A stretch of 64,000 bases of DNA from an uncultured Prevotellaceae bacterium (GTDB taxonomy: Bacteria; Bacteroidota; Bacteroidia; Bacteroidales; Bacteroidaceae). Shown here piece after piece: positions 4,372-48,366 of this stretch. The notes beneath the pieces were generated by a model. That model made no database searches and was not told where the DNA came from. It worked only from the letters and a program-made list of their open reading frames with translations. The first letter of the stretch is position 1. Each line of letters opens with the position of its first letter. The stretch spans positions 1 to 64,000 of the forward strand of contig CACYME010000015.1 of the NCBI GenBank assembly GCA_902775475.1. The letters are read 5' to 3'. The position numbers and the translations under genes were made by a program.

Positions 4372-4781
4372 TTAAGGAAATAATGAACACTTACCCCTCG
4401 CCAGAAATCGAAAATTTCGCGCGAGAAAATTTTTGGCTGAAAAAAAACGAATTTTGAGCCGTTTTACTAACCCGCTAAGTAACAATTCGTTAGGATTAAA
4501 TTTGGAAAATTTCGGGCCTTTTCGTTTTCAAAAGTCAACGCCAAATTTTTCTGCGGCGTTGACTTTTGAAAATTTGGCGTGCTTAAAATCGAGAGAAACA
4601 TGCCCCAAAAACGCGAAAAAGCCGCACAGAACCATACGATTTGTGCAAAAATCGGGCCTTCTGTCCATGTTTTTACCAGTCATTATCACTCGTCAACGGT
4701 CAAAAACGGTCTTTTTTCGACCTAAATTGCATCGAAATCCTGTACTTTTTATTTAAGGAAATTTAAGATAATTTTGAACAA
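4372..4781 (+). repeat. Dispersed interlocking-hairpin repeat, copy 1
   Basis: About 410 bp of the 738-bp spacer. The left end GGAAATAATGAACACT and the right end AATTTTGAACA resemble each other and the ends of the other copies. A conserved stretch (CGCGAGAAAATTTT, then CGAATTTTGAG) follows the left end. The core has AAAAGTCAACGCC at 4530-4542, its reverse complement at 4555-4567, and CTTTTGAAAATTTGGCG at 4563-4579. The inner B segment has drifted in this copy. A 107-codon frame crosses it but is not conserved among copies. The spacer from 4078 to 4371 is AT-rich and shows nothing else. Confidence 0.75.
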
Positions 4782-4799
4782 TAAACGAACCGAAATAAC

Positions 4800-4807
4800 T
4801 ACCTTTG
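4800..4807 (+). promoter_or_regulatory. -7 promoter box of papain-like lipoprotein gene
   Basis: TACCTTTG ends 8 nt before the ATG at 4816. The transcript would therefore have almost no 5' leader. A TTTG at 4773-4776, inside the end of repeat copy 1, is a possible -33 element with a slightly long 23-nt spacing. Confidence 0.6.
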
Positions 4808-4815
4808 CAGCGCTT

Positions 4816-5391
4816 ATGAAATATGCTATTTTTGCCTTGACGATGCTGCTTGCAGGATGCGCCGGAGCACGCCATGGTCTTCGTCGTGGAGACCTGCTGT
4901 TTCATGTAGTCAGCCAGGGAAACCATATCACCGACGTGACACCTGGACAAACCGACCACGTCGCTATCTATGTGGGGCGTGGACAAGTGCTGGAAGCCAT
5001 TCCCAGAGCGGGAGTGGTCACTACCCTACTGGACACGGTGCTGCTGCGCGAGGCCGGCTACTACGTGCGAGGCCGCGTGAGAGGTGCCGACGTGGAGCAA
5101 TCGCTCCGCAACGCCCGCCAATACCTCGGTTTGCCCTACGACTCGCTCTTCCTGCCAACCGCTGAGGCCATCTACTGCTCCGAGCTGGTGCAGCTGGCCT
5201 TTGTGGACAAACACGGGCGAAGGCTGTTCCATACGATTCCCATGTCTTTCCACGACGAAACGGGCAGCATCACCCCCTACTGGCAGCAGTTCTACGGACG
5301 CTGGGGGCTGACCGTGCCCGAGGGCGAACCCGGAACAAATCCCGGCGAGCTGTCGCAAAGAAAGGCGGTAGTAATAAAAAAGCTAAAATAA
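4816..5391 (+). CDS. YiiX-like permuted papain-fold cysteine hydrolase lipoprotein
   Basis: Envelope lipoprotein of 191 residues with lipobox LLAGC (Cys15) and an NlpC/P60-type permuted papain fold. The GDLLFH strand opens the domain; the candidate catalytic Cys121 is in YCSELVQ and His48 in TDHVAIYVG, the order seen in YiiX/YaeF-type proteins. The family hydrolyses amide or ester bonds in peptidoglycan or lipid-linked substrates; the substrate here is unknown. Translation from ATG 4816 gives a proper signal peptide, and the upstream frame start at 4774 lies before the promoter box. A small hairpin follows the stop. Confidence 0.8.
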   Translation: MKYAIFALTMLLAGCAGARHGLRRGDLLFHVVSQGNHITDVTPGQTDHVAIYVGRGQVLEAIPRAGVVTTLLDTVLLREAGYYVRGRVRGADVEQSLRNARQYLGLPYDSLFLPTAEAIYCSELVQLAFVDKHGRRLFHTIPMSFHDETGSITPYWQQFYGRWGLTVPEGEPGTNPGELSQRKAVVIKKLK

Positions 5392-5393
5392 TA

Positions 5394-5420
5394 GGTTCAC
5401 ATGCGCGTTATGTGAATTAT
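5394..5420 (+). terminator. Weak hairpin after the papain-like lipoprotein gene
   Basis: TTCACAT and ATGTGAA form a 7-bp stem followed by T/A-rich sequence. It is a weak terminator candidate located just before the pgk promoter. Confidence 0.35.
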
Positions 5421-5426
5421 TTATTG

Positions 5427-5434
5427 TATCTTTG
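5427..5434 (+). promoter_or_regulatory. -7 promoter box of pgk
   Basis: TATCTTTG lies 53 bp before the pgk ATG, matching TAnnTTTG. Confidence 0.6.
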
Positions 5435-5487
5435 CGCTCAGGTTCAGAAACCATTAATTAAGTTTTATATTAAAATTGTAAATCAAA

Positions 5488-6759
5488 ATGACAATCAACG
5501 AAATGAACTTTGCCGGTAAGAAGGCAATCGTGCGCGTTGACTTCAACGTGCCCCTCGATGAGAATGGTAAGATTACTGACGACACCCGCATTCGCGGTGC
5601 CCTGCCCACGCTGAAGAAGATTCTGGCCGACGGTGGCGCTGTCATCATCATGAGCCACATGGGCAAGCCCAAGGGCAAGGTGAACCCGAAGCTGTCGCTG
5701 GGTCAGATTCGTGAGGCCGTGGAGAAGGCTCTCGGAGTGCCCGTGGCTTTCGCTCCCGACTGCGCCAAGGCTGCCGACGCTGCTGCTGCCCTGAAGATGG
5801 GCGAGGCTCTGCTGCTCGAGAACCTGCGCTACTATCCCGAGGAGGAAGGCAAGCCCGTGGGCATCGACAAGGCCGACCCCGCCTACGACGAGGCCAAGAA
5901 GGCCATGAAGAAGAGCCAGAAGGAGTTCGCCAAGACGCTGGCCAGCTATGCCGACTGCTACGTGATGGACGCCTTCGGCACCGCTCACCGCAAGCACGCC
6001 TCTACTGCCGTCATCGCCGACTACTTCGATGCCGACAACAAGATGCTCGGCCTGCTCATGGAGAAGGAAGTGCAGGCCGTTGACAACGTGCTGAGCAACA
6101 TCAAGCGCCCCTTTGTGGCCATCATGGGTGGCTCGAAGGTGAGCTCGAAGATTGGCATCATTGAGAACCTGCTGGGCAAGGTCGACAAGCTCATCCTCTG
6201 CGGTGGCATGACCTACACCTTCGCCAAGGCTCACAATGGTGAGATTGGCAACAGCATCGTGGAGCTCGACAAGCTCGACGTGGCCCTGGGCGTTGAGGAG
6301 CTGGCCAAGAAGAACGGCGTGGAGCTGGTGCTTGGCAGCGACTGCACCGCCACCAACGGCCTCGACTTCGGCACGATGACCGTGAAGGAAGGCGCTGAAA
6401 TCATCAACTGCCCCGCCGACAAGGTGCCCGAGGGCTTCGAGGGCGTCGATGCCGGTCCTGAGAGCCAGAAGGCATTTGCCGAGGCTATCAACGGCGCCAA
6501 GACCATCCTGTGGAACGGTCCTGCCGGCGTGTTCGAGTGCGACAACTTCACCGCAGGCAGCCGCGCCATTGGCGAGGCCATCGCCAAGGCTACGGCCGAG
6601 GGTGCCTTCTCGCTCATCGGCGGTGGCGACTCGGTGGCTTGCGTCAACAAGTTCGGCCTGGCTGACCAGGTGAGCTACATCTCTACTGGTGGTGGTGCTC
6701 TGCTCGAGGCCATCGAGGGCAAGGTGCTTCCCGGTGTGGCTGCCATCAAGGGCGAGTAG
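5488..6759 (+). CDS. pgk: Phosphoglycerate kinase
   Basis: Glycolytic enzyme transferring phosphate from 1,3-bisphosphoglycerate to ADP. The 423 residues are near the usual length. The N-terminal signature [10 protein letters not shown] and substrate-loop sequences ([18 protein letters not shown]) are present. The C-terminal nucleotide-binding lobe has [18 protein letters not shown] and the glycine-rich GGGDSVACV. It is a single gene with its own promoter. Codon use is strongly biased to C/G-ending codons, as expected for high expression. This bias also leaves a full-length open frame on the opposite strand, which is an artefact. Confidence 0.98.
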
Positions 6760-6764
6760 TTGTG

Positions 6765-6855
6765 TGTTTAGCGTTGAGAGTTGAGAGACTTTACAACCGA
6801 GCCTCTCGGCACTCAACTAAAGTTTCTCAACTCTTAACTGTCAACTCTAAACTAA
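6765..6855. repeat. GTTGAG-type low-complexity inverted repeat downstream of pgk
   Basis: The spacer contains TTGAGAGTTGAGAGACTTT on one side and an AAAGTTTCTCAACTCTTAA arm on the other, able to form an imperfect hairpin. It belongs to the same family of TTGAG/CTCAA-rich sequences seen near 1.7 kb, 17.0 kb and 21.3 kb. Confidence 0.5.
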
Positions 6856-6862
6856 ATTTGGA

Positions 6863-7717
6863 ATGAAAAAGTTCCTGATTACAACGATGGGGCTTCTGGT
6901 TATGCTGAGCTGTAACCAGAAGCCCCGCTCGGTTTCCAGCGACAACGCCGACGACGACGACGATGATGACCGTGTGGAGCTGAAGCTGAAAGACTATCAG
7001 TTCACAGACACTGTCGGCATGGCCCATAGTACCATCATCATCGAATACCCCGTCAAGGGCGAAAAGGAACTGGTCAATGCCATCAGGCAATACATTGCCG
7101 AATGGGTGGGCCTGGAAAGCGACGAGGTGGAGCTGGACGATGGCCAGGGCGTTACCGATTACTTCGGAAACGGGACGATGGAACGCCTGAAGGAGATTGC
7201 TGCTGGATACGAGGAGGAGGAAGACGACTACGTCAACGAGGTGTACCACGACTGGTCGTTCTCGAAACTCTACGAGACCGACGACTACGTCACCTTCATG
7301 GGCTATACCGAGCTCTATGAAGGCGGCATTCACGGCATCAGTTACGAGAATGGCGTCACCTTCTTCGACGGCGGTCAGCGCTTCTCAAAGGAGATGCTGC
7401 GCAATATCGACGGCGAGAAGTTCCAGAAGCTGATGCGCAAGGGGCTGAAGGATTTCTTCAGCAAGAACCCCGACAACATGACCGACGAGGAGCTGGGCGA
7501 AGAGCTCATCAACGTGGAGGATGTCTATAACATTCCCATGCCCGATGCAGAACCGTACATCACCGAGGATGGCGTCACCTTCATCTATCAGCCCTACGAG
7601 ATTTCTTACTATGCCGCAGGCAAGCCGGAGTTCTCGGTGCCGCTCACGAAGATGCGCCCATTCCTCACCAAGAAAGCCCTCCGGCTGCTCGACATGGACG
7701 AGGAGGACGAGGACTGA
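6863..7717 (+). CDS. DUF3298 (RsiV-like) domain lipoprotein
   Basis: 284-residue predicted lipoprotein: signal peptide with Cys17 in VMLSCNQK, then a very acidic linker of Asp residues (about 29-37). The central region is like DUF4163 (KGEKELVNAIRQYIAEW). The C-terminal half has the DUF3298 pattern: a GGIHGISYENGVTFF motif, then an FSKEMLRNIDGEKFQKLMRKGLKDFF helix pair, and PYEISYYAAGKPEFSVPL near the end, as in RsiV-type extracytoplasmic proteins. No sigma factor lies nearby, so an anti-sigma role is not implied. Function is unknown. Confidence 0.7.
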   Translation: MKKFLITTMGLLVMLSCNQKPRSVSSDNADDDDDDDRVELKLKDYQFTDTVGMAHSTIIIEYPVKGEKELVNAIRQYIAEWVGLESDEVELDDGQGVTDYFGNGTMERLKEIAAGYEEEEDDYVNEVYHDWSFSKLYETDDYVTFMGYTELYEGGIHGISYENGVTFFDGGQRFSKEMLRNIDGEKFQKLMRKGLKDFFSKNPDNMTDEELGEELINVEDVYNIPMPDAEPYITEDGVTFIYQPYEISYYAAGKPEFSVPLTKMRPFLTKKALRLLDMDEEDED

Positions 7718-7837
7718 GCCATGAAAGTGCCCTTTGGGGGTCATAGGATTATTAGTTATAGTATAGAAAAAACGGCAATTCTAAACATCTAAGGAATTGT
7801 GAAAAGGAAAATGAGATTTGTAGCACGGTTGGCATTT

Positions 7838-7897
7838 ACAACTTAGGGCAACGCTCTTTCCTTACGTAAGAAAAGATGGTTGCCCTAAGTTGTTTTT
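7838..7897. terminator. Bidirectional terminator between DUF3298 gene and prfC
   Basis: ACAACTTAGGGCAAC (7838-7852) pairs perfectly with 7879-7893. An inner palindrome sits around TTACGTAA. The hairpin is followed by T-rich sequence and lies between convergent genes. Confidence 0.8.
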
Positions 7898-7920
7898 GTT
7901 GTCTGTATTTCCCTATGTTT

Positions 7921-9510
7921 TCAGAACTCCGAGGTGAAGTGGAACTGCAGGTGCTTGAAGTCCTGCTGCGCCATCTGTAGCATATAGCCCGAGTCGGCCA
8001 GGAAGACATCCCTACCCTCTTTGTCCTTGGCCATATACTGGTACTTGCGCTTCTTGAACTGCTCCAGCTCCTCGTCATCGTCGCTGCTGATCCAGCAGGC
8101 CTTGTAGAGGTGGACAGACTCCCAGCGGCACTTGGCATTGTACTCGTTCTCCAGCCGGTACTGAATGACCTCAAACTGCAGCTGGCCCACGGTACCGATA
8201 ATCTTGCGGTTGTTGAACTGGTTCACAAACAGCTGAGCCACGCCTTCGTCCATCAGCTGGTCGATGCCCTTCTGCAGCTGCTTGGCCTTCATCGGGTCGT
8301 CGTTCTCGATATATTTGAACAGCTCTGGGGAGAAGGAGGGCAGGCCCCGGAAGTGGAGCTGCTCGCCCTCGGTGAGCGTGTCGCCAATCTTGAAGACACC
8401 GCCGGTGTCGGGCAGGCCGACGATGTCGCCCGGCCATGCCTCGTCGATGGTGCTCTTTCGCTGTGCCATGAACTGCGTGGGCGAGGTGAAGCGCATGGTC
8501 TTGCCCTGACGCACATGCAAATAGGGCACGTTGCGCTGGAACTTGCCTGAGCATACCTTACAGAAGGCGATGCACGAGCGGTGGTTCGGGTCGATGTTGG
8601 CCGTTATCTTGAAGATGAAGCCCGTGAACTTCTGCTCTTCGGGCTGCACGTCGCGCTCTTCGGCCTTGGTGGGACGCGGACTTGGGGCAATCTCCACGAA
8701 GCAGTTCAGCAGCTCTTGCACACCGAAGTTGTTCAGCGCCGAACCAAAGAATACGGGTGCTACCTCGGCAGCCCGATATGATTCCACGTCGAACTCGGGG
8801 TAGACGCCGTCAACCAGTTCCAAGTCCTCACGCAGTTTCTCGGCGTCACGCTCCCCTACCCTGCTGTCAAGCTCTTCGCTGTCGATGTTCACCTCCACCT
8901 TCTCCGTCACGCGCTGCTTGTCGGGGGTGAAGAGGTCGAGCTTCTGCTCGTAGATGTTATAGACGCCCTTGAACTTGGCCCCTTGATTGATGGGCCAGCT
9001 CAGCGGGCGAACACTGATTTCCAGTTCTTTTTCCAGCTCGTCGAGCAGGTCAAAAGGATCGCGGCCCTCGCGGTCCATCTTGTTGATGAAGATGATGACG
9101 GGCGTCTTCCTCATGCGGCAGACAGTCATCAGCTTCCTTGTCTGGGTCTCCACACCCTTGGCACCGTCGACCACGATGATGGCCGAGTCGACGGCCGTCA
9201 GCGTGCGAAATGTATCTTCTGCGAAGTCCTGGTGGCCCGGCGTGTCGAGGATGTTCACCTTGTACTCAATGTCCTTGCCGTCGGGCGTATAGTCGAACTC
9301 CATCACCGACGTCGACACCGAGATGCCGCGCTGCTTCTCAATGTCCATCCAGTCGCTGGTGGCGGTCTTCTTGATTTTATTGTTCTTCACTGCGCCAGCC
9401 ACCTGAATCTGTCCGCCGAAGAGCAGGAACTTTTCGGTCAGTGTGGTCTTACCGGCATCGGGGTGCGAAATAATCGCAAACGTTCTTCTTCTTTCTATCT
9501 CTTGATTCAT
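7921..9510 (-). CDS. prfC: Peptide chain release factor 3
   Basis: GTPase that recycles RF1/RF2 from the ribosome after termination. 529 residues from the ATG at 9510, normal for RF3. G-domain motifs: SHPDAGKTT (G1), the conserved RGISVS switch region, DTPGHQDF (G3) and [18 protein letters not shown] (G4, RF3-specific continuation). The C-terminal RF3 domain follows. The start at 9510 is preferred over the frame start at 9525 because its ATG overlaps the rfbD stop as ATGA, which indicates translational coupling. It is the last gene of the DUF4924-rfbD-prfC group and ends at a bidirectional terminator. Confidence 0.97.
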
Positions 9511-10355
9511 AGTTTGGCAATGCACTCAGCTAACGACTCTTCCCAGTAGGGAATGTCGATGTTGTATGTCTGCTTGATTTTCGTCTTGTCGAGCACGCTG
9601 TAGTGCGGGCGTGCTGCCGGCGTGGGGTATTCGGCGGTGTGCAGCGGACGCACATGGCAGGTGGTGATGGCGGCCAGACGATGAATGGCTTTGGTGAAAT
9701 CGTACCAGGAGATAACGCCCTCGTTGCTAAAATGATAGATGCCGGGCCTTACACCCTTTTCTATGGCTGTGAAGATGGCTACGGCAAGGTCGCGGGCATA
9801 GGTGGGCGTGCCTATCTGGTCGAAAATGACGCCCAGCTCCTGACGCTCTTTGCCAAGCCGGATCATCGTCTTCACGAAGTTGTTGCCGAAGGTGCTGTAT
9901 AGCCATGCCGTGCGGATAATCATGGTGTGGCGACAGGCTCGCTGGGCCTCTTGCTCTCCAGCCAGCTTCGTGCGGCCATAGGTGCTATTGGGACATACGG
10001 GGTCGGTCTCCACATAGGGCACATGGTTGGTGCCGTCGAAGACGTAGTCGGTGGAAATCTGAATCATCCAGCCACCACGCTGCTCGATAGCAGCTGCCAG
10101 ATAGCCGGGAGCCGCCGTGTTCAACAAGGCGCAGAGCTGCTGGTTCTCCTCGGCCTTGTCGACAGCGGTGTAGGCAGCACAATTGACGATGCCGTCGATG
10201 GCGTTGTCGATGACATAGCGCTCTACCGCAGACTTGCTGGTGATGTCCAGCTCCTGCACGTCGGTGTTGAAATAGGTATGTCCAGCGTGCTGTTGTTCGA
10301 GCAACTGCATCTCGTTGCCCAGTTGGCCGTTACAGCCTGTTATCAGTATGTTCAT
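9507..10355 (-). CDS. rfbD: dTDP-4-dehydrorhamnose reductase
   Basis: NADPH-dependent final step of dTDP-L-rhamnose synthesis, feeding O-antigen or capsule assembly. 282 residues with the SDR/RmlD hallmarks: [12 protein letters not shown] nucleotide-binding loop at the N-terminus, ISTDYVFDG, and the YGRTKLAGE catalytic Tyr-Lys motif. The other rml genes are not in the window. The start lies 1 nt after the DUF4924 stop, and the stop overlaps the prfC start. Confidence 0.95.
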
Positions 10356-10356
10356 T

Positions 10357-10902
10357 TCAATCGAGTTTTAATCCTTCTTCCTTGTCTTGTTTGTAGTAGT
10401 CGCTCAGCATGCCGATGAAGGTGGAGATTTCCTTCACGGCGTGCTGCGTGTCGGGGGAAATGTCTTTCTTCTGCAAGCGAAGCATCATTACGCCGTAGAG
10501 GAGGTTCAGGCAGGTTTCAATCTCGCTCACCTCCTTCGAGCTTCCCTTGCTGCGGAGTTCCACAATGAAAGGCAGCACTTTATAATATGCCGAATTGTAG
10601 AATGGGAACTTGGGTGAGCTGAGCAGCTGCAAGTGCAGTTCCGACAGCAACTGCAGCGTGGTACGATTGATTTGCAGGTGGCCTTGCTCCCGGCAACCTT
10701 CCTCGTTCATCATGCGGATGAGGTTGCCATACCAGTCGATGAGCTCTTCCTTCTGCTCCTCGTCGTAGTCAAAGCGTTCCACGTATTCACGACGGATTCG
10801 TGGCAGCGAGCAGTTGAAAGCACGGATGGTGTCTTCCACCTGCCACATGTAGAGCAAATATTCGGCAATGTTCTTCTTGCGAAGTTCGTTGGCTATAAAC
10901 AC
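10357..10902 (-). CDS. DUF4924 family protein
   Basis: 181-residue, predominantly helical cytoplasmic protein with no signal peptide, recognised as the Bacteroidetes-restricted DUF4924 type (N-terminal MFIANELRKKNIAEYLLYMWQVED). Charged helices run throughout and there is no catalytic motif. Tight coupling to rfbD (1-nt gap) and prfC suggests co-transcription. Function is unknown. Confidence 0.7.
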   Translation of the reverse strand: MFIANELRKKNIAEYLLYMWQVEDTIRAFNCSLPRIRREYVERFDYDEEQKEELIDWYGNLIRMMNEEGCREQGHLQINRTTLQLLSELHLQLLSSPKFPFYNSAYYKVLPFIVELRSKGSSKEVSEIETCLNLLYGVMMLRLQKKDISPDTQHAVKEISTFIGMLSDYYKQDKEEGLKLD

Positions 10903-10907
10903 GGGGT

Positions 10908-10958
10908 GTTGAAGTGATAAGTGATGAGTGATAAGTGATAAGTGATGAGTGAAAAGTG
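10908..10958. repeat. Short tandem AGTGATRA repeat
   Basis: Five to six tandem 8-9 bp units of the type AGTGATAA/AGTGATGA fill almost the entire gap between the SASA esterase and the DUF4924 gene. No spacers, so not CRISPR. Variable copy number is plausible. Confidence 0.6.
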
Positions 10959-10959
10959 A

Positions 10960-12411
10960 TTACCAGTTGTCGGTGCGGAAGGGGAAGAGGGGCAGGTTGG
11001 CCCCGTTCACCACATTGCCGAGCTGGAAGTTGCGGAAACAGTAGCGAACGGCCACGGGATTCGGCACTTCGGGGCAGGTCAGCTTAATGGCCTCGTCCCA
11101 ATAGCCACCGCCCTGGCGCCAGAAGTGCTGGGCACGGGCAGGATGGAACACGCGGTCTTCGCCAGCCAGCTCAAAGCCCCGGATGTCTTCGAAGGGAGCA
11201 TCGCTGTGGTAGTTGTCCTGCAGGTGAATGTAGACCACATCGCCATCAATCTTCATGTCTTTATACGATGAACTCTTGTAGAGCACCTCGCTGAAGCCAT
11301 AGTCACGGTTCAGCGCAGTCCAAGCAAGGCGCTCGCCCACCTGCTGTTTTTGAGTGGGGTGAATCTGCGAGAACTCATAAGGATAAACGAGGTCATTGGT
11401 ACACACGATGGAACTATTGGGGATGATCTGTGCAGCCTTGAACTGCTGCTCACGGAGCTTTGGCCCCCAGTCGCCGTTTACGTCGCCATTCTCGTAAGGA
11501 GCTATCTGAACGAAATAGAAGGGTATTTCACCGAGTCCGAACTGCTGCCGCCACTGCTCCACGAGTAGCTTCAGGCGCTGCGAATACTGGTCGCCAGGGT
11601 CGCCCACGTTTGAGCAGCCCTGGTAGAAGAGAATGCCTTTCACGGTGTAGTTCAGGATGGGGTTGAACGTACCATTGCCCCAGAGGAGCGAGCGGTGATA
11701 GTCCATGGGCCACTTAGCGGCGATGGCAGCCGAGTCGGTGGGGTCGCTGGTATTTTTCTGCAAGTTCTCCTTCGTGAGCCAGCTCTCTACGCGCGAGCCG
11801 CCTTTGTTGGCCTCAATCAGTCCGATGGGAATGTCGAGTGCCTGATGCATCACCCGGGCGAAGAAATAGCCCGTAGCCGAAAAGTCACTCACCGTCTGAG
11901 GACCGCAGACACGCCATTCACACTGAGCATCTTCCTGTGGTTCTGTGCGCATGATGCTGGGTATCTTCACGCTGTGAACGGCTTTATGCTGCGCCGATTC
12001 TAACACCCACTGGTTGTATCCCTCAACGGGGCACTGCCAGAAGCCTTTCACGGGCATCTCCATGTTCGACTGGCCGGCGCAGACCCACACCTCGCCGCTA
12101 AGCACACCATTGATGGTCAGCGGCTCGCCGTCATCGAAAGTGATGGACAGCGGCTCATAAGACGCTTTAGGCGACTTCACCTTCACCAACCACTTACCGT
12201 CCTTGCCTGCCTTGACGCTCTGCACGTCCCGGCTCCATGAAGTAGACACCTTTACCAGCTTCCCAGCTGAAGCCCAGCCCCATAGGCGGACGTCCGTCTG
12301 CTGTTGAATTACCATGTTGTCGCCAATGAGATGGGGCAACCTTACCTTGGCCTGCGTGCTCATACCGATGGCAGCGGCGGCCAGCATCATCACTATTCGC
12401 TTCGTCTTCAT
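10960..12411 (-). CDS. SASA-family (sialate O-acetylesterase-like) carbohydrate esterase
   Basis: Secreted or periplasmic acetylesterase of 483 residues with an N-terminal signal peptide ending near AQA (about residue 21). A beta-sandwich-like N-terminal region precedes the SGNH-type catalytic domain. The nucleophile Ser115 lies in CAGQSNMEMP, and the His of IHPTQKQQVGERLA near residue 352 completes the likely triad. Members deacetylate sialic acids, xylan or pectic sugars. Here it follows the CE12 gene by 25 bp, which favours a plant-glycan substrate by inference. The database name sialate O-acetylesterase should not be read literally. Confidence 0.82.
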   Translation of the reverse strand: MKTKRIVMMLAAAAIGMSTQAKVRLPHLIGDNMVIQQQTDVRLWGWASAGKLVKVSTSWSRDVQSVKAGKDGKWLVKVKSPKASYEPLSITFDDGEPLTINGVLSGEVWVCAGQSNMEMPVKGFWQCPVEGYNQWVLESAQHKAVHSVKIPSIMRTEPQEDAQCEWRVCGPQTVSDFSATGYFFARVMHQALDIPIGLIEANKGGSRVESWLTKENLQKNTSDPTDSAAIAAKWPMDYHRSLLWGNGTFNPILNYTVKGILFYQGCSNVGDPGDQYSQRLKLLVEQWRQQFGLGEIPFYFVQIAPYENGDVNGDWGPKLREQQFKAAQIIPNSSIVCTNDLVYPYEFSQIHPTQKQQVGERLAWTALNRDYGFSEVLYKSSSYKDMKIDGDVVYIHLQDNYHSDAPFEDIRGFELAGEDRVFHPARAQHFWRQGGGYWDEAIKLTCPEVPNPVAVRYCFRNFQLGNVVNGANLPLFPFRTDNW

Positions 12412-12436
12412 AATCTTGCTTCTGTCTATTCTGAGT

Positions 12437-25850: not shown

Positions 25851-25939
25851 CGCAAAAAAAGCGAAAAACACGATGTTTCAATGATATTTTTTCTGATTTT
25901 AGATAATTCTTGATTTATGTTCTATTGCTCAGTCGAAAA

Positions 25940-26360
25940 AGTGTTCAAAATTTCCACTAAAAAAAGTTCAGGATTCCGACGCATTCTGGAGTGAAAAATG
26001 GGCGTTTTGAGCGAATTTTGTCGAACGACCAACTTGGAAAGAAGTGACTGACTGGGCAAAAACTGCACAAACAGGGTAATTTTGTGCAGTTATTTTCGTT
26101 TTTCTTGACACATTTCTTGCGTTTTTTGGCTCGTCACTCACATTTTTAAGCACGCCAAATTTTCAAAAGTCAACGCCTTTTGAAAATTTGGCGTTGACTT
26201 TTTCAAGCGAAAAAGCCCCGAATTTTCCCAGAATGTGCGTAACAGTCTGTTTCTTAGACGTTTATCGACGCCCCTCAAAAATCGCTTATTTTCAGACGAA
26301 AGTTTGCTCGTTCAAAATTCTCGCGTATTTTTGAGGGTCGAGTGTTCAATATTTCCTTAA
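25940..26360 (-). repeat. Dispersed interlocking-hairpin repeat, copy 2
   Basis: About 421 bp, inverted relative to copies 1 and 3. On the minus strand it opens with GGAAATATTGAACACTCG (26355-26338) and closes with GGAAATTTTGAACACT (25955-25940), two near-identical words in direct orientation. The core is intact at 26153-26202: AAAAGTCAACGCC, CGCCAAATTTTCAAAAG, GGCGTTGACTTTT and CTTTTGAAAATTTGGCG in overlapping succession. It fills most of the spacer between the divergent glycogen synthase and exported-protein genes; the remainder is AT-rich without recognisable features. Confidence 0.8.
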
Positions 26361-26468
26361 AATTAACTTCCGTTAAGTTTTCAGGGGCATTATTACCCAT
26401 CTTTCTGCTGCCAGTTTGGCCAGGATGTTAATCTTCTGAAAATGCTTGTTGGAAATAGTTGTTTTTAG

Positions 26469-36977: not shown

Positions 36978-37017
36978 TTTTATTGTTATTGTTTGATAAA
37001 ATCTTCCATAACGTGTG

Positions 37018-37097: not shown

Positions 37098-37148
37098 CAA
37101 CAAAAAAGAAAAGCGTTGGCATTATTTGCCACCTCGAAGTAGCGAATT

Positions 37149-41474: not shown

Positions 41475-41506
41475 AAAAGGGAACCTTCACAGGTTCCCTT
41501 TTTGTT
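41475..41506 (+). terminator. Terminator of tamB
   Basis: AAAAGGGAACC pairs with GGTTCCCTTTT around a 6-nt loop and is followed by TGTTTT, immediately after the tamB stop. Confidence 0.85.
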
Positions 41507-41734
41507 TTCACTTGCAATTTGATTTAACTGCGCAAGTGAAGAATGTTGAAAATTGCTCATCTCACGACGTCCAATTTTCTCAATTAACCTTAATAATCTA
41601 ATACCATGAAAAACACGATGCAAAAATACTACTTTTTTTGCAAATTCAAATCAAAATAATGTTCAAAATTCCCTATTTTAATCTTTATTAATAATTTTAC
41701 CCTTGAATACCATCTGCTTCTCGTTTTATTTTAC

Positions 41735-41742
41735 TAACTTTG
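41735..41742 (+). promoter_or_regulatory. -7 promoter box of LuxR-type regulator gene
   Basis: TAACTTTG ends 9 nt before the ATG at 41752, implying an almost leaderless transcript. Confidence 0.6.
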
Positions 41743-41751
41743 CAGCGAAAT

Positions 41752-42354
41752 ATGGAACAGCATCAACCAAAGATAGCCATCATTGATTCTAACACTCTGG
41801 CAGTTATGGGCATGAAGCAGCTCATAATGAGTGTGAGTCCTGTTGTCTGTGTTGACACATTTGGTTGTATGGCAGAGTTAGAGGCTAACCATCCAGAACA
41901 ATACGTCCATTTCTTTGTAGCCATGAACATCGTTCTTGAGAATAGGTCATTTTTCATTCAGCATTGCCACCGCACGATTGTTCTGACTCTCTCGGTCTGT
42001 CCCGACAAACAGCTTTCTGATTTCCATTGCCTTTGTGTTAGCGTGCCAGGAAACGACCTCGTTCGTTCTATGCTAATGATGATGCAGCACGGCCACAGAA
42101 GAAACGATAACATTGCGGGCACACGCCCTACTCCCCAGACGGATTCACGTAGTCTTTCCGACCGCGAAGCCGAAGTGATGGTGCTCATCGTAAAGGGATA
42201 TATCAACAAGGAAATTGCCGACCTACTTCACATCGGTCTCTCCACCGTTATCACCCACCGTAAGAACATCATGGAGAAGCTGGGGGTGAAGAGCGTCAGT
42301 GCTCTCACCATCTACGCCGTCATGCACGGCTATGTCGACATCAACAAGATTTAA
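41752..42354 (+). CDS. LuxR/NarL-type regulator with degenerate receiver domain
   Basis: 200 residues. The C-terminal HTH_LuxR domain (about 133-195) is well conserved: LSDREAEVMVLIVKGYINKEIADLLHIGLSTVITHRKNIMEKLGV. The N-terminal half has receiver-like strands (IAIIDSN with acidic Asp12), but the phosphoacceptor Asp position (VHFFVAMN) has no aspartate, so classical phosphorylation is unlikely. No histidine kinase is adjacent. ATG 41752 follows a promoter box by 9 nt. Downstream is the Wza-like gene with its own promoter. Confidence 0.8.
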   Translation: MEQHQPKIAIIDSNTLAVMGMKQLIMSVSPVVCVDTFGCMAELEANHPEQYVHFFVAMNIVLENRSFFIQHCHRTIVLTLSVCPDKQLSDFHCLCVSVPGNDLVRSMLMMMQHGHRRNDNIAGTRPTPQTDSRSLSDREAEVMVLIVKGYINKEIADLLHIGLSTVITHRKNIMEKLGVKSVSALTIYAVMHGYVDINKI

Positions 42355-42463
42355 TTTCCAACAAAGTGCATTTTGCAGCCCAGAGCTGCAGTTTGAGGCT
42401 TAAAAAATATTAAGGCATGGAAAATAACTCGTTTGTCCTAAGCCCTAACTCCTAACTTTTTAT

Positions 42464-42471
42464 TACCTTTG
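42464..42471 (+). promoter_or_regulatory. -7 promoter box of Wza-like gene
   Basis: TACCTTTG, 28 nt before the ATG at 42500. Confidence 0.6.
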
Positions 42472-42499
42472 CAGCCAAAAAGGAAAAAACAGAACAAAC

Positions 42500-43297
42500 A
42501 TGACTAAGATTTTCAAGCTGATGGCAGCTGCTGCAGTCGTTGTGATGCTGGGCAGTTGCGGTAGTGTGAAGGACATTCCGTACTTCCAGAATGCAGAGAG
42601 TACGAACCTGGCAAATTCAGCCTATCTGTATGATGCGCGTATCATGCCGAAGGACCAGCTGACCATCACAGTGAGCACAATCAACGACGAGGCCGCCGCA
42701 CCGTTCAACATGACAGTTCCCACGCCCTACACCGTAAACTCGCGGTCTACCTACTCGCAGCCAATGCTGCAGTCGTATCTGGTGGACAACAACGGCAACA
42801 TCAACTTCCCCATCGTAGGCCAGCTTCATGTAGGCGGTCTGACGAAGGCCGAGGCAGAGAATATGATACAGGGCAAGATTCAGCCTTACATCAACGAGGC
42901 CGAGAAGCCCATCGTCACGGTACGCATGACGGGCTACCAGATTTCGGTCATCGGTGAAGTGACGCGTCCCGGTACATTCACAGTGAGCCGCGAGAAGATT
43001 ACGGTGCTTGAGGCTCTGGCACAGGCTGGCGACCTGACCATCTATGGACAGCGCAAGAACGTGCAGCTCATCCGTGAGGACTCGAAGGGTCAGAAGAGCA
43101 TCCACATCCTCGACCTCACCGACGCGAACCTCATCAACTCGCCCTATTACTACATGCAGCAGAACGATGTCATCAACGTGACTCCTAACAAGGTGAAGGC
43201 TCAGAACTCCAGCGTGGGTAGCATGACGACGCTCTGGTTCTCGGCAACGTCAATTCTCATCTCGCTGACTTCGCTGCTCTACAACATTCTGAAGTAA
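42500..43297 (+). CDS. Wza-like polysaccharide export lipoprotein
   Basis: Outer-membrane polysaccharide export protein of 265 residues. Lipobox at Cys20 (MLGSCGS). The Poly_export domain (about 45-140) contains IMPKDQLTITVS and LVDNNGNINFPIVGQLHVGGLTKAEAENMI, followed by an SLBB domain (ISVIGEVTRPGTFTVSREKITVLEALAQAGDLTIYGQRKNVQLIRE). A C-terminal hydrophobic segment (about 240-262) could span the membrane. No Wzc, glycosyltransferase or flippase is adjacent, so it is an orphan here, located after a LuxR-type regulator. Confidence 0.9.
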   Translation: MTKIFKLMAAAAVVVMLGSCGSVKDIPYFQNAESTNLANSAYLYDARIMPKDQLTITVSTINDEAAAPFNMTVPTPYTVNSRSTYSQPMLQSYLVDNNGNINFPIVGQLHVGGLTKAEAENMIQGKIQPYINEAEKPIVTVRMTGYQISVIGEVTRPGTFTVSREKITVLEALAQAGDLTIYGQRKNVQLIREDSKGQKSIHILDLTDANLINSPYYYMQQNDVINVTPNKVKAQNSSVGSMTTLWFSATSILISLTSLLYNILK

Positions 43298-43323
43298 CGA
43301 CATTTTCATCCCATTAATGACTA

Positions 43324-43364
43324 TCCGCCAAATAGCCTGATGCTGTTTGGCGGACTTTTTTTGT
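43324..43364 (+). terminator. Terminator of Wza-like gene
   Basis: TCCGCCAAA pairs with TTTGGCGGA around a short loop and is followed by a run of seven T. The rest of the spacer to 43569 contains only a 33-codon frame (43399-43500) with no supporting features, and a GGCGC/GCGCC hairpin near 43521-43552. Confidence 0.85.
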
Positions 43365-43569
43365 TCCTTCGCATTCTACGCCACTCCACCCCATATTCAT
43401 GAGGAGAAACAGGGATAAGACCTGCATTTCAGATTGTGCACAAGGCGACATGGCGGAGGGCAACAAGGCCGAGTTTGCGAGGCAATTCAACGCACTTTAA
43501 AGGTACATGTAACAAGAAAGGCGCCTCCGCAATGGAAGCGCCTGTGCTGATTCTGGCGGTTAACGCCAT

Positions 43570-46500
43570 TTACTTAATGACTACCTTCTTGCCATTGGTG
43601 ATGTAGAGGCCCTTAGAGGGAGTTGCCACCCAAATTCCAGTGGGAGTGAAGTAGCGCTGCTGGCCATCGGCTTGCGGCAGGTCGGCCACGCCTGTGGTGA
43701 CGCCCTCGTCGAAGCCAATGAAGGAGCGTGTGGCAGCAGGCAAGGGAAGATAGGCTTTTCCTGCGGGAACGACAACGCCCTGCGTACAGAGATAGAAGCC
43801 CACGCCCTGACTCATGTTAGCCAACGCATAGATGTCGTCGGAGTCAACAGCATAGCCCTCGGCATCGGTGACAGCCACGAGCATGTTCTGAGCAGGAACC
43901 TCGGCCATAGTGACGATGGGCAGACGATAGGTGGCCGCCTCGCCCTTCAGCAGCAGACCTGTGGCGGCAGGCGCCTCGCTAACAGGCTCCAGATGCACAC
44001 TGTTGCCACTATATTCCGTCACCACGTAGGCGGCTTCCAGTCCTGCGCTGCTCAGGTCGAGTGCGTAGTTGCAACCGAACGAAGTGTAGCCGGCGTTACC
44101 AATCTGCACACCCACAAAGTCAGCATTATAAGTGGTTTCAGAAGCGATGTGGCCCTCGCTGGCGGCAGTAACGGTGAGCGTGCCGGGCTGTTCGAAGGCA
44201 TAGCCATAGCGGTCGGTGCGGTAGATGCGGATATTGTCGAACATGCTCTCGCCATAGCCACGTCCGTCGAGGACGAACAGCCCATAAGCCTCGCAGCTGG
44301 TGCCCGTGGGGATGGTGAAGACACCGCTGCCGATGGTTGTTCCAGCCTGCGTGAGCGTGTAGGTGGCGGTGCGTGCCTCTACATCGACGGCAATGACGAA
44401 GTGAGTCCACTCGGCAGCCACGGTGAGGGCGGTGGTCTCGTTGATGGTGAAGTTCTGGCTGTTGGCCGCCTTCATGCGGAAGAGATACTTCGTGCCAGCG
44501 GCGTTGCAGCGGTCGTTGCTGTAGTCGAAGCCGATGTTCTTGGTGGTGGGAATAACGGCGCCCTTGGTCATCACCACGAAGTCGGTGACACTGCGGTCAG
44601 CAACGTTGCCGGCGCGCAGCCGTGCATCGAACTCGATGTTGTACGTTGTGAGTGAGGAGAGATCCTTGCCGAAGAGGGTGTAGGCCGAACGATTGGCGGC
44701 AATGTTTGTGCCAGCCATCGAGTGGTGGATGTATTGCCCGAAGGTAGCGTCGCCGCTGACGAGCTCGAGCGTTCCTGCTCCATTGGTCCAGGCCGATGCG
44801 TCGGTGGCCGTCTCGTAGTCTTCTGCGTAGGGTGTGTCAACGATATCGGCCTTGCTCGTGTTGCCCTCCAGGTCGGTGAAGGTGGCGGTGAGCAGAGGCA
44901 TGACGGTGTTGCCGTCGGAGGCGACGAAGGAATTGGGCTTGATGTCCACCACGGGCAACAGGATGCCCTCGCTGGTAGTCTGAAGGCTGTTCTCTGTGAT
45001 GGTAGCCTCGGGGCAGAGATCGGCGATGCCCGTACCTACGACGAGCCACAGATGGCCCTCGTCATATTTCAGCGTGGCATTGTCTGCACCCTCCAGAACG
45101 ATGTCTTCCACGTTGCCAGTCAGTGTGCCCACGGTGCCCAGGTCGTAAGTGCCGTCGGGCAGTGCACTCTGAGTCACAATCTCAACGACTGGAGCCAGAT
45201 ACTGCGGTCCATAGGTAGTCCACGCCTCGCCTGTCTTGGCTTCTATCACCAGCTCATCGGCATTGATGTTGTCGGCCTTCAGGTTGGGATAGACATCGAG
45301 CACCAGTCGGGCACCATAGTTCAGCGTGAGCTTGGAAGTGGTGATGCTGCCCATGTTCTGCTCGCCTCCAGGGACGATGCGCGAGGCATAGAGGGCGGTG
45401 ATGCCTTTGCTGAAGGTTCCACCGTCAGAGACAAGTGTGGTGAAGCGGTTCAGCCAAAGGGGACTGCTCTGCAATGTTCCGTCGAACTTGAGCGTGCCTG
45501 CCCATACGCTGGTTTCTCCCGTATACTTTTCGATGACCTTCGGCAGCACCAGCGTTCCGTCGCCCTGCTTCACCAGGCGCATTGCCCCAGTGAAGGCTCC
45601 ACCCGTGAGCGTGTGGGTGTAGACGGTGGTGCTGATGTCGGGCAGGTTCTTGGCGCCGATGCTTCCGTCGGTCTTCACCTTCGTTGCTGTGGTGCCGTCC
45701 ACGTCGGTTCCCTGCACCCACGTAGGCGTATTCACAGTAAGGATGTAGGGAGCCGCTCCGTCAGTGACGCTGACGGTCATGTCGTTCGTCTCAGCCATGA
45801 GCAGATGGGCATTGGTGGTGGCGATGGTTCCACCGTTGGCCACCTCGGTGCGTCCCTGCATGGTCTGCGCAGGAGGAGCCACGTTGAAGCCTTCCATCTC
45901 GCCAAGGAAGAAGCTCAGGTGGGGCGGCTGGTTGTAGGCCATCATCTGCCACACCATAGCCTGACGGTACTGGTGGTCGAACCAGAGACAGGGCATGGAG
46001 TAGGTGGTGCTGATGCCAGTAGTGTAGACGCGAAGGTTGCGTCCGCAGCGCACCACGAATTCCTCGCGCCAGTCACCGATGATGTCGCCTTGGAAGCAGG
46101 GGGTATTCTTCGAGTCGTTGTTCATGTTGCATCCGTTCGAGGTAAAGAGGCGGCCCACGCCGGGCTTCTCAATCTTCGCCTCCTTGGCCGTGCCGGGGCT
46201 GTCGAGGATTTCGGAGCAGAGGTCGCCGTCGAAGTAGATGCGGAAGTTCAGGTCGCCGTAGTTGATGTAGGCGTCGCTCCCCATGTCGGAGCGCAGCTGG
46301 TCGGTCACCGACGACATCATCACGCTCGACGAGGAGCGTCCCAGCGAGCCGGGCCAGTTGTCGGAGAAGTTGGCCATCAGCGCACGCCCGTCGTCATCGC
46401 CCGCCGTATGCTTGTAGTACACCTCGCTGGTGGTGGCATTGCGATAGTTGAAGCCGTAGTAGGGGCCTTCCTCAAGGCAGCCGAAGAACTCCAGTCCCTT

Positions 46501-47832
46501 GCGGTAGGGGTCGAAGTCGCCCACGTGCTGGGCATCGCCATGACCATAGCCAGTGGTGGAAAGGCCCTTTCCGTTGTCGTCGATAACCATCGAGCCGTAG
46601 ACAATCTCATCGCGCCCGTCCTCATCGACGTCGGCAATGATGAAGTTGTGATAGCCATTACCGAACCAGGGGCTGTTCTTGTCTTTGCACTGCCAGCGCC
46701 ACTGCTCGCTCCAGGTGTGGCTGGCTTTGTCGAGCTTCATGGCCACCATCTTGTGGCGGGTGTAGATGCCTCGCGCCAGGAAGAGGCTGGCATGGCGTCC
46801 GTCAAGCACGGGTGCACCAAGGAAGTGCTTCGTCGAGCGGTGGCCGTAGCTGTCGCCCCATGCCGAGTTCTCGCTGCTCTCGCCACTCTCCAGGCGGCGC
46901 AGCGGATAGGTGGAGACCTGGTACTTGGCACCCGTCTGGCCGTTCATGTAGATAAGATACTCTGCGCCAGTGTGTGTCCAGGCATATTGCAGGTCGGTGT
47001 GACTGGTCATCTTGTCGCGGGTGTTCACGGTCATGTCGCCGACGGTCCACAGACTGGTCTTGCCGTCGGGGCCGTAGACAATCATGTTGTCGGCTCCGCG
47101 AAGGGCCACCTCGGCCTTGCCGTCCTCATCCCAGTCGTAGGCAATGATGTCGATTTCCGTGGAGTTCATGCTGGCCATGTTGGGGCCGCAGTCGATGCGC
47201 CAGAGAAGCGAAGCCTCGCCCGTCTGCCAGTTGACATCATAGGCGTCGAGCACTACGAACTCGTTGGAGTTCACTGAGTACATTTCGCCCCAGGTGCCGC
47301 TGGCCGATGCGTCGTTGGTGTTCAGGCGCTTGACGATGATTTCCAGCTCGCCGTCGCCGTCGAGGTCAGCCATCTCGGCATCGTTGGGTTCGTAGTGTTC
47401 GCTCACGTCCAGTCCTGCACGGTCGTAGACGGCTGCCAGCCCGATGTCGAGATAGCCCGTGGCCGTGCGACGGTCATCGAGCTTGTAGACATACTGCGTC
47501 CAGGGCTTCACGGGGGCGCATTTTGCCTGCTCCACGCCCTTCACCACGGCAGCCACCTGGTATTGCGTGGTGTTGTAGGCCTGGCTTCCGTCGTTATAGC
47601 AGGTGTTGGTCAGGTTTGAGGCTACGCGCGTACCATCTTTATATAAGTTATACGTCACGTCATAATACTCGTCGGCCAGCCTTCGCCAACTGACAAAATT
47701 GGTTCTGCTGCCACTGGTGCTACCCGTAGGCACGGCCACCAGCCCTCGGTTCAGCGCATCGGTCACGCGCTGTGCCTGCACGCCGCCGCAACATCCAGCA
47801 GTCAGTGCGAGAAGTAGAAATAGTTTTTTCAT
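43570..47832 (-). CDS. Large modular rhamnogalacturonan lyase (PL11) with C-terminal extensions
   Basis: Secreted 1420-residue enzyme cleaving the rhamnogalacturonan I backbone. Signal peptide (about 1-20). The PL11 catalytic domain (about 20-655) shows NRGLVAVPTGSTSGSRTNFVSWR, YLDIGLAAVYDRAGLDVSEHYEPNDAEMADLDGDGELEI and QGDIIGDWREEFVVRCGRN. Residues about 740-830 have autotransporter-type repeat wording (LVKQGDGTLVLP, ETSVWAGTLKFDG). A LamG/jelly-roll-like domain follows (about 1000-1210). The C-terminal tail GLYITNGKKVVIK resembles Bacteroidetes type IX sorting ends. The length is about twice a minimal PL11. Promoter box TATCTTTG at 47867-47874. Confidence 0.88.
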   Translation of the reverse strand: MKKLFLLLALTAGCCGGVQAQRVTDALNRGLVAVPTGSTSGSRTNFVSWRRLADEYYDVTYNLYKDGTRVASNLTNTCYNDGSQAYNTTQYQVAAVVKGVEQAKCAPVKPWTQYVYKLDDRRTATGYLDIGLAAVYDRAGLDVSEHYEPNDAEMADLDGDGELEIIVKRLNTNDASASGTWGEMYSVNSNEFVVLDAYDVNWQTGEASLLWRIDCGPNMASMNSTEIDIIAYDWDEDGKAEVALRGADNMIVYGPDGKTSLWTVGDMTVNTRDKMTSHTDLQYAWTHTGAEYLIYMNGQTGAKYQVSTYPLRRLESGESSENSAWGDSYGHRSTKHFLGAPVLDGRHASLFLARGIYTRHKMVAMKLDKASHTWSEQWRWQCKDKNSPWFGNGYHNFIIADVDEDGRDEIVYGSMVIDDNGKGLSTTGYGHGDAQHVGDFDPYRKGLEFFGCLEEGPYYGFNYRNATTSEVYYKHTAGDDDGRALMANFSDNWPGSLGRSSSSVMMSSVTDQLRSDMGSDAYINYGDLNFRIYFDGDLCSEILDSPGTAKEAKIEKPGVGRLFTSNGCNMNNDSKNTPCFQGDIIGDWREEFVVRCGRNLRVYTTGISTTYSMPCLWFDHQYRQAMVWQMMAYNQPPHLSFFLGEMEGFNVAPPAQTMQGRTEVANGGTIATTNAHLLMAETNDMTVSVTDGAAPYILTVNTPTWVQGTDVDGTTATKVKTDGSIGAKNLPDISTTVYTHTLTGGAFTGAMRLVKQGDGTLVLPKVIEKYTGETSVWAGTLKFDGTLQSSPLWLNRFTTLVSDGGTFSKGITALYASRIVPGGEQNMGSITTSKLTLNYGARLVLDVYPNLKADNINADELVIEAKTGEAWTTYGPQYLAPVVEIVTQSALPDGTYDLGTVGTLTGNVEDIVLEGADNATLKYDEGHLWLVVGTGIADLCPEATITENSLQTTSEGILLPVVDIKPNSFVASDGNTVMPLLTATFTDLEGNTSKADIVDTPYAEDYETATDASAWTNGAGTLELVSGDATFGQYIHHSMAGTNIAANRSAYTLFGKDLSSLTTYNIEFDARLRAGNVADRSVTDFVVMTKGAVIPTTKNIGFDYSNDRCNAAGTKYLFRMKAANSQNFTINETTALTVAAEWTHFVIAVDVEARTATYTLTQAGTTIGSGVFTIPTGTSCEAYGLFVLDGRGYGESMFDNIRIYRTDRYGYAFEQPGTLTVTAASEGHIASETTYNADFVGVQIGNAGYTSFGCNYALDLSSAGLEAAYVVTEYSGNSVHLEPVSEAPAATGLLLKGEAATYRLPIVTMAEVPAQNMLVAVTDAEGYAVDSDDIYALANMSQGVGFYLCTQGVVVPAGKAYLPLPAATRSFIGFDEGVTTGVADLPQADGQQRYFTPTGIWVATPSKGLYITNGKKVVIK

Positions 47833-47866
47833 CTGTCCTTTTTGTTAGATTAGTCCAATATGGCTG

Positions 47867-47874
47867 CAAAGATA
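47867..47874 (-). promoter_or_regulatory. -7 promoter box of PL11 lyase gene
   Basis: TATCTTTG on the minus strand, 34 bp before the ATG. Confidence 0.6.
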
Positions 47875-47957
47875 CAATTATTTTTTCAAACGGCCAAAAA
47901 ACAAGATGATTATCCCAAAGTGTACCACCGGATTTGTTTCTAAATTATTGTTAATAT

Positions 47958-48366
47958 TGTTCCGAAAAAGAACACTCGACCCCTTCAAATTTTCGAAAAT
48001 TCTGCGCGAGAAAATTTTGGGCCGAAAATGAGCGAATTTTGAGGGGTTTCGCTAAATGGTTGGAATATAGGCATTTATGATTATTTTAGCGAAAAAAGGC
48101 GGCGGAAGGCTGAAAAAAAGTCAACGCCAAATTTTCAAAAGGCGTTGACTTTTGAAAATTTGGCGTGCTTACAGAACAGAGGTCGAGGCAAAAAAATGGC
48201 AAAAAAACGCTAAAAATTTGCGCAGAACGGATATGGATGTGCAAGAATTAACTTATTTTAATTCTCGTCGGCGAGTCGAAACAGCTCCACGAAGACTAAA
48301 AAAGGGTTATCTTCGAGCCAGAATCACGTCTCAAGGTGAACTTTTTTAGTGGTGATTTTGAACACT
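47958..48366 (+). repeat. Dispersed interlocking-hairpin repeat, copy 3
   Basis: About 409 bp in the spacer between PL11 and hsp20. The left end AAGAACACTCGACCCC matches copy 2, and the right end GGTGATTTTGAACACT matches the family terminus. The GCGCGAGAAAATTTT and GCGAATTTTGAG blocks are conserved. The core at 48117-48167 is perfect: AAAAGTCAACGCC, CGCCAAATTTTCAAAAG, GGCGTTGACTTTT and CTTTTGAAAATTTGGCG. A 65-codon frame to its right is not conserved in the other copies. Confidence 0.8.

What the first reader, a model, noticed from the sequence alone, without database searches (positions are those of the whole stretch)
4372..48366. Dispersed ~410-420 bp non-coding repeat family with near-identical direct end motifs
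Three spacers (4372-4781, 25940-26360 inverted, 47958-48366) carry the same element. It has GGAAAT(A/T)TTGAACACT-like words at both ends in direct orientation, a conserved CGCGAGAAAATTTT / GCGAATTTTGAG block, a conserved core, and a conserved AAAAAACGC segment to the right. Intervening sequence is diverged while ends and core stay, which suggests selection or a mobilisation constraint. There are no terminal inverted repeats and no transposase. I know of no named family with this layout.
Basis: seen in the sequence. Interest (0 to 1): 0.82.

Follow-up and report, generated by a model that had tools for sequence, protein, structure and literature searches.

The report
Flipping-core dispersed repeat of Prevotella
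One Prevotella genome carries about 170 copies of a roughly 430-base non-coding DNA element, with all 102 examined copies lying between genes; it is likely a mobile element moved by an enzyme encoded elsewhere, and its almost unchanging core would be a protein-binding site that has been turned around again and again.

Summary
The spaced core of the element occurs 173 times in this 3.73 Mb genome and 69 times in one other species, but in only 2 of 386 genus genomes. Copies are about 415-435 bp, AT-rich and intergenic. They have sharp ends, no detectable target duplication and similar words in direct orientation at both ends. Majority agreement is 98% in the core without its flipped 12 bp, and 70% elsewhere. 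The core is 9-bp words GTCAACGCC/GGCGTTGAC set 21 bp apart, a spacing kept in three species although spacers differ. Core segments have been inverted at least 14 times on a core-masked tree. No Rfam match, intact mobilising gene or nested covarying stems were found. No movement was caught: 3 of 3 loci are shared with a near-identical strain. Best reading: a non-autonomous mobile element with an iteron-like, probably protein-bound core (0.55). It fails the TIR and TSD tests for a MITE. New variant of a known kind.

The parts
4358..4782 (+). element copy 1 (subfamily II)
   Evidence: profile match 4358-4780, 270 bits; right word ends at 4782
4374..4391 (+). left end word of copy 1, AAGGAAATAATGAACACT
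4534..4585 (+). core of copy 1, state A, inner 12 bp AAATTTTTCTGC (variant also seen in G083)
4624..4646 (+). GCACA...TGTGC inverted pair of copy 1
   Evidence: pair in the subfamily consensus folds
4763..4782 (+). right end word of copy 1
25936..26377 (-). element copy 2 (subfamily II)
   Evidence: profile match, 303 bits
26341..26358 (-). left end word of copy 2, AAGGAAATATTGAACACT
   Evidence: direct-repeat pair with the right end
26147..26198 (-). core of copy 2, state A
26058..26094 (-). TGCACA/TGTGCA inverted pair of copy 2
   Evidence: I2
25940..25957 (-). right end word of copy 2, GTGGAAATTTTGAACACT
47937..48370 (+). element copy 3 (subfamily I)
   Evidence: profile match, 430 bits
47914..47929 (+). 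outer motif CCCAAAGTGTACCACC beside copy 3 (family I outer arm)
47960..47976 (+). left end word of copy 3, TTCCGAAAAAGAACACT
48120..48171 (+). core of copy 3, state A
48220..48242 (+). GCGCA...TGTGC inverted pair of copy 3
   Evidence: pair in the subfamily consensus folds
48349..48366 (+). right end word of copy 3, GTGGTGATTTTGAACACT

Best explanation
This is a family of about 170 dispersed, non-coding ~430-bp elements that is likely a non-autonomous mobile element, predicted to be moved in trans by an unidentified recombinase or transposase that would act at the directly repeated end words, with a core of 9-bp words set 21 bp apart that would be bound by protein. Shown: copy number, intergenic placement of 102 copies, sharp ends without detectable target duplication, similar direct words at both ends, a core far more conserved than the rest, 21-bp word spacing kept while spacer sequence changes, repeated inversion of segments in the core, and presence in very few species. 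Inferred: that it moves; that a protein supplied from elsewhere binds the phased words (21 bp is about two turns of DNA, so the words would face the same side) and brings the two ends together; that movement leaves no target duplication, as with single-strand, rolling-circle or site-specific recombinases; and that the inversions record times when the core stood as a hairpin or cruciform.
For: Copy number and range: 173 spaced cores in the own genome (83 + 90), 69 in G083, none in the other 384 of 386 genus genomes. The 21-bp unit was found in 9 of 398 (153 in G000, 57 in G083, 24 in G116, 1-3 in six others). Placement: 0 of 102 copies lie within an ORF; the 100 with both neighbours called are 37 divergent, 13 convergent and 25/25 co-directional for the two element orientations. 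Ends: information falls to near zero outside both ends. Left-right word identity is 0.60 (I) and 0.78 (II) against 0.27 to internal 20-mers; in II the two ends of one copy match better than shuffled partners (0.783 v 0.735, 0.0002 of shuffles). Core: 98% majority agreement without the flipped 12 bp (90% with them) v 70% elsewhere, 99 copies, while whole copies have nearest neighbours of only 80-90% identity at the median. Spacing: of distinct word pairs within 60 bp, 48 of 52 (G000 loci), 13 of 17 (G083, 398 kb) and 14 of 16 (G116 loci) are exactly 21 bp apart; a reversed control word gave 2, 0 and 0 pairs, none at 21. Flips: best-fitting states 45 A, 55 B, 2 C of 102; at least 14 changes on a tree of 131 copies built without the core. 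Place turnover: 24 loci have a >=60% identical relative of a nearby gene in 398 kb of G083; 19 of them have no element within 3 kb there.
Against: No movement was caught. In three stray contigs of a near-identical strain, 3 of 3 elements sit at the same place as in the own genome, one of them visible only from its core rightwards. No copy carries a gene and no autonomous relative was found: of 36 right-end matches, 32 belong to known copies; the other four are a truncated right end, a divergent full copy, and two with no element around them. The only Y1 transposase found is truncated. The most alike full-length pair is 92% (95% over 295 bp), so a recent burst is not seen. The left-right word correlation may reflect shared ancestry, and is absent for subfamily III in the register used. 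Of the five loci with something nearby in G083, one (L097) has an element 81 bp from the same end of a 63% identical gene, in the opposite orientation. The pair scan gave more Watson-Crick-like pairs than chance (61 of the top 400, about 14 expected), so some structural constraint is not excluded. MAG assembly limits the search for a mobiliser.
Confidence: 0.55

Rival explanations
1. An ordinary TIR-type MITE whose ends have eroded: the outer motif CCGCAAGNGTACCACC beside family I copies is the remnant of true terminal inverted repeats, moved by a standard DDE transposase.
For: At up to 3 mismatches the motif lies outside family I copies at fixed distances: left 6-13 bp in 7, right direct at 9 bp in 3, right inverted at 40-47 bp in 6 of 31. 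A longer form (25 specified bases, up to 3 mismatches) occurs 6 times in the genome, all beside copies.
Against: Most family I copies lack it at that stringency, no II or III copy has it at these distances, the conserved boundary lies inside it, and no target duplication is seen.
Confidence: 0.2
2. Host-maintained chromosome sites: the phased words bind a nucleoid or segregation protein and the elements are kept because each one works where it lies.
For: Core kept at 98% in diverged copies; 21-bp spacing in three species; both strands used equally; positions shared by two near-identical strains in 3 of 3 cases.
Against: Not found in nearly all relatives, while a basic chromosome function should be widespread; places mostly differ between the two species compared; conserved end words and sharp ends are not needed for this role.
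Confidence: 0.18
3. A structured non-coding RNA or cis-regulatory RNA family.
For: The core and the TGCACA...TGTGCA pair can form hairpins. Consensus folds within subfamilies are stronger (-41.5, -29.3, -19.4 for I, II, III) than for all copies together. 61 of the top 400 covarying pairs are Watson-Crick-like, about 14 expected.
Against: Consensus fold of all 99 copies is weak (-12.6); the ten strongest pairs are the inverted segment itself and, by eye, the others form no nested runs; no strand preference to neighbouring genes; no Rfam match at the copies.
Confidence: 0.05
4. Assembly or binning artefact.
For: The genome is a 69-contig draft; stray contigs occur in a relative's assembly.
Against: Copies differ by 10-20% from their nearest neighbours at the median and have different flanks; three loci are reproduced in another assembly.
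Confidence: 0.02

Closest known systems
BrickBuilt MITE of Porphyromonas gingivalis (PMC4596501; outline, abstract and passages seen)
   Same: Bacteroidales; intergenic, non-coding, multi-copy; a leader and a tail around an internal run of short repeats (23 nt there; 21-bp units here, tandem in G116).
   Different: BrickBuilt has 12-nt terminal inverted repeats like IS5-family elements and 19 copies in ATCC 33277; here no TIR on the common unit, direct end words, 173 cores, core words inverted and flipped rather than only tandem.
Prokaryotic MITEs in general, e.g. Correia and ERIC (review PMC10969869; passages seen)
   Same: Typically under 500 bp, AT-rich, normally intergenic, often high copy number, no transposase gene.
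   Different: TIRs and target duplications, which mark MITEs, were tested and not met for the common unit.
REP/BIME elements with RAYT Y1 transposases (recalled, no paper seen)
   Same: Dispersed, extragenic, palindromic parts, mosaic structure.
   Different: REPs are a few tens of bases; the only Y1 gene found here is truncated.
Plasmid iterons (recalled, no paper seen)
   Same: Repeated words about two helical turns apart.
   Different: No replication gene is part of the element; dispersed in a chromosome.

Membership tests
MITE | short (<~500 bp), AT-rich, no coding capacity, many copies between genes | tested here: met
   415-435 bp; 38.7% GC v 53.5% window; stop-free stretches near shuffled values (minus 95.9 v 87.5, plus 70.0 v 71.4 codons), though 44 of 102 copies have one of >=100 codons, in varied frames; 0 of 102 within ORFs; 173 cores
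MITE | terminal inverted repeats | tested here: not met
   end words are direct in I and II by count and in III by eye; an outer inverted motif only beside a minority of family I
MITE | target-site duplication | tested here: not met
   1785 length/offset combinations per subfamily on 30 I, 23 II, 41 III copies, left edge set by me; best-scoring cases were matches in 2, 3 and 3 copies
MITE | a parent transposon with the same ends | tested here: inconclusive
   36 right-end places, 32 of them known copies, no gene-bearing relative at the other four; draft assembly
BrickBuilt | 23-nt tandem repeats between leader and tail with IS5-like TIRs | tested here: not met
   21-bp units, mostly one inverted and one direct word, no such TIR
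REP/BIME with RAYT | intact Y1 (RAYT) transposase linked to the repeats | tested here: not met
   one Y1 match in the genome, truncated; nearest listed copy on that contig about 14 kb away
Structured RNA (Rfam) | match to a described family | tested here: not met
   only RNase P matched in the window at gathering threshold
Structured RNA (Rfam) | compensatory base changes in nested stems | tested here: inconclusive
   61 of top 400 pairs Watson-Crick-like v about 14 expected, ten of them the flipped segment, no nested runs by eye; R-scape not available
Iteron array | phased repeats bound by a cognate protein | not testable with these tools
   spacing shown; binding needs an experiment

The most novel reading that the evidence does not exclude
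A new kind of bacterial interspersed element: a gene-less cassette with directly repeated terminal words and an iteron-like core phased at two helical turns, moved through a single-stranded or circular intermediate by a protein that reads the phased words, so that the core's hairpin loops are repeatedly inverted as a by-product and record its movement.
Probability: 0.2. Interest if true: 0.8.

Novelty: new variant of a known kind. Interest (0 to 1): 0.52.

Why it matters
If each of the 173 cores lies in a ~0.43 kb element, about 2% of this chromosome is made of one undescribed element seen in very few species of a large genus. Its end layout fits no standard TIR/TSD transposition model, and its core pairs near-perfect conservation and fixed 21-bp spacing with recurrent inversion. 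That gives a natural record of hairpin or cruciform formation, and a concrete way (a DNA pull-down with the core) to find the protein behind it.

Tried and rejected
Rfam and plasmid searches found nothing at the element. Structured RNA: weak joint fold and no nested stems by eye, despite an excess of Watson-Crick-like pairs. Coding: stop-free stretches close to what composition gives. Y1/RAYT: the single gene is truncated. Outer inverted motif as the true end: restricted to part of family I. Flank similarity between loci came partly from other dispersed repeats in both orientations (299 of 479 matches were not same-side, same-strand). The right-end match at window 41653-41669 has no element around it. 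Target duplication: none found. Viral contigs: one exact 21-mer absent. Literature: four searches listed no paper on such a family in Prevotella among the rows shown; three papers were opened, for outline or passages only. First count of word spacing (80 of 84, 13 of 17, 42 of 44) read some G116 loci more than once, so I recounted distinct sequences.
Full report
WHAT IS THERE. The three spacers hold one element. The window is contig C15 of a 3.73 Mb, 69-contig genome, 99% complete. A BLAST with copy 3 scored 40 of 209 first-look candidates and listed 40 copies plus short inverted core matches. The 30-base core occurs 115 times at up to 3 mismatches. The spaced core GTCAACGCC-N12-GGCGTTGNC-N12-GGCG occurs 173 times at up to 1 mismatch, with 0 for the backward pattern. 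I analysed 102 copies with flanks: the 30 fetched, 10 more of its places, 60 of the 64 remaining places among the first 100 listed, and the window's copies 1 and 2. Fifteen further stretches were read later; 14 of them hold an element or part of one. The sample is not random.

HOST AND RANGE. Two genus mates can be named: contigs 1 and 5 of G083 have the lengths of CADASP010000001.1 and CADASP010000005.1, MAG RUG13587 (that RUG stands for rumen is recalled), and G116 fits SRR1206671 bin.47, CAMNJH01, by shared sequence. The unit pattern (up to 2 mismatches) was found in 9 of 398 genus genomes: 153 in G000, 57 in G083, 24 in G116 and 1-3 in six. The full spaced core was found in 2 of 386 genomes at least 85% complete; the backward control rang once, in G140. 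The 30-base core was found in 1 of 60 relatives, the own genome. A BLAST with copy 2 matched 7 of 200 genus genomes.

ANATOMY. By score to a family-I profile the 102 copies fall into I (31), II (24) and III (47); these are score bins, not proven clades. Boundaries are sharp. Family I runs from about TTTCTAAATTTTTGTTAATTTTGTTCC to GTGGTAATTTTGAACACTATTTT; II from CTTAA... through AAGGAAATATTGAACACTC to GGAAATTTTGAACACT; III from TTTTTTTGAACAATATTGACAAAATGGCC to CTGTGAAAGATTTTGACATTTT, where the right word is sometimes repeated in tandem (seen by eye). Words at the two ends are alike in direct orientation: mean identity 0.60 in I and 0.78 in II against 0.27 for internal 20-mers. In II the ends of one copy resemble each other more than shuffled partners do (0.783 v 0.735); in I slightly (0.602 v 0.585); in III not (0.443 v 0.442), but there the register used was wrong for the left word, and by eye TGAACAATATTGACA and TGAAAGATTTTGACA share 12 of 15. 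Shared ancestry can produce part of this. No target duplication appears in 30 I, 23 II and 41 III copies. Beside family I there is an outer motif, CCGCAAGNGTACCACC, at fixed distances: left in 7, right direct in 3, right inverted in 6 of 31 at up to 3 mismatches.

CORE. Without the inner 12 bp that flip, the 52-bp core agrees with the majority at 98% of cells over 99 copies; with them 90%; the rest of the element 70%. Whole copies have nearest neighbours of only 80-90% identity at the median, 92% at best. Best-fitting core states are A (45), B (55) and C (2) of 102: in B the 12 bp between the words are inverted, in C the second word is; two of the A calls in III fit badly (8 and 11 mismatches). 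A second inner sequence, AAATTTTTCTGC / GCAGAAAAATTT, is also seen in both orientations. On one FastTree of 131 copies (20 from G083) with the core removed, at least 14 state changes are needed; shuffled labels need 36 on average, minimum 28. In that copies, 18 of them from G083, had no assigned state and were allowed any; tree error was not assessed. In G083 the spacers differ in sequence but keep 12 bp in the copies shown. In G116 the words form 21-bp tandem arrays inside quite different palindromic elements. Of distinct neighbouring word pairs within 60 bp, 48 of 52 (G000 loci), 13 of 17 (G083) and 14 of 16 (G116) are 21 bp apart, against 2, 0 and 0 pairs of a reversed control word, none at 21. 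Copies within a species are related, so the counts are not independent; the three species and layouts are the stronger evidence.

PLACE. None of 102 copies lies within an ORF of at least 100 aa that reaches 150 bp past both ends, by a simple caller. Of 100 with both neighbours, 37 are divergent, 13 convergent and 50 co-directional, 25 for each element orientation. In the window, neighbours include a papain-like amidase (copy 1), a glycogen synthase (copy 2), and a rhamnogalacturonan lyase and an Hsp20 (copy 3).

DOES IT MOVE. In 398 kb of the 4.1 Mb of G083, 24 loci have a >=60% identical relative (not proven orthologue) of a nearby gene; one of these (copy 2) only through a gene 20 kb away. 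Nineteen have no element within 3 kb there. Of the other five, copies 1 and 2 point to one gene with an element on its other side, L082 is 1.8 kb off, L033 has an 18-bit core-like match, and L097 has an element 81 bp from the same end of a 63% identical gene but in the other orientation. At L005, where both neighbours match, G083 has a gene and no element between them, so the site is not a clean empty one. So places mostly differ between species. Within the species nothing was seen to move: RGIG3793 (G224), 66-81% identical to the window by matched piece, contains three contigs about 98.5-99.4% identical to the own genome, which I take as stray contigs of a near-identical strain, and 3 of 3 elements sit at the same place; one contig starts inside the core, so its left end is not seen. 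One pair differs by a deletion of about 58 bp that takes out the TGCACA pair. Elements and flanks differ at similar rates there (8/438 v 29/2110; 4/471 v 42/3471; 1/230 v 13/2250).

WHAT IT IS NOT. Not a catalogued RNA. Consensus folding of 99 copies together is weak (-12.6), stronger within subfamilies (-41.5, -29.3, -19.4). The pair scan gave 61 Watson-Crick-like pairs among the top 400, about 14 expected; the ten strongest are the inverted segment and the rest form no nested runs by eye. Not evidently a gene: stop-free lengths are near shuffled values, although 44 of 102 copies have one of at least 100 codons in varied frames. Not a MITE by definition: two defining tests fail. Not linked to an intact Y1 transposase.

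VERDICT. Most likely a non-autonomous mobile element with direct end words and a phased, probably protein-bound core. Steps shown: number, layout, conservation, spacing, flips, range. Steps inferred: movement, the trans-acting enzyme, binding, and hairpin or cruciform as cause of the flips.

Noticed in passing
L112, L114, L122, L126, L132, L134 (genome G116); L171-L173, L176: Another dispersed family in a different Prevotella species: several-hundred-bp quasi-palindromic elements with GTGCTAC / GTAGCAC words at both sides, in some copies GAGACATA-type inverted arms, and GGCGTTGACTTTTT-type 21-bp units in the middle.
   Followed up: partly
L168, L188, L177 (RGIG3793, JAFTGI01): Three contigs in this MAG are about 98.5-99.4% identical to the window's genome while matches to the window piece searched are 66-81%: probable stray (mis-binned) contigs.
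   Followed up: partly
L141 1399-1866 (-): Single Y1 (HUH) transposase gene that appears truncated after the FSWQ stretch, with short repeats around its start that read as IPMVY/PYTDG peptide repeats.
   Followed up: no
flanks of G000 copies: The genome holds several other dispersed intergenic repeats near these elements, in both orientations.
   Followed up: no
window 1285-1688: RNase P RNA (class A), 178.7 bits.
   Followed up: no
L180 (RGIG1450), L170 (RUG13587): Short arrays of the same 21-bp unit beside GGAGCGC-type words, another setting for the word.
   Followed up: no
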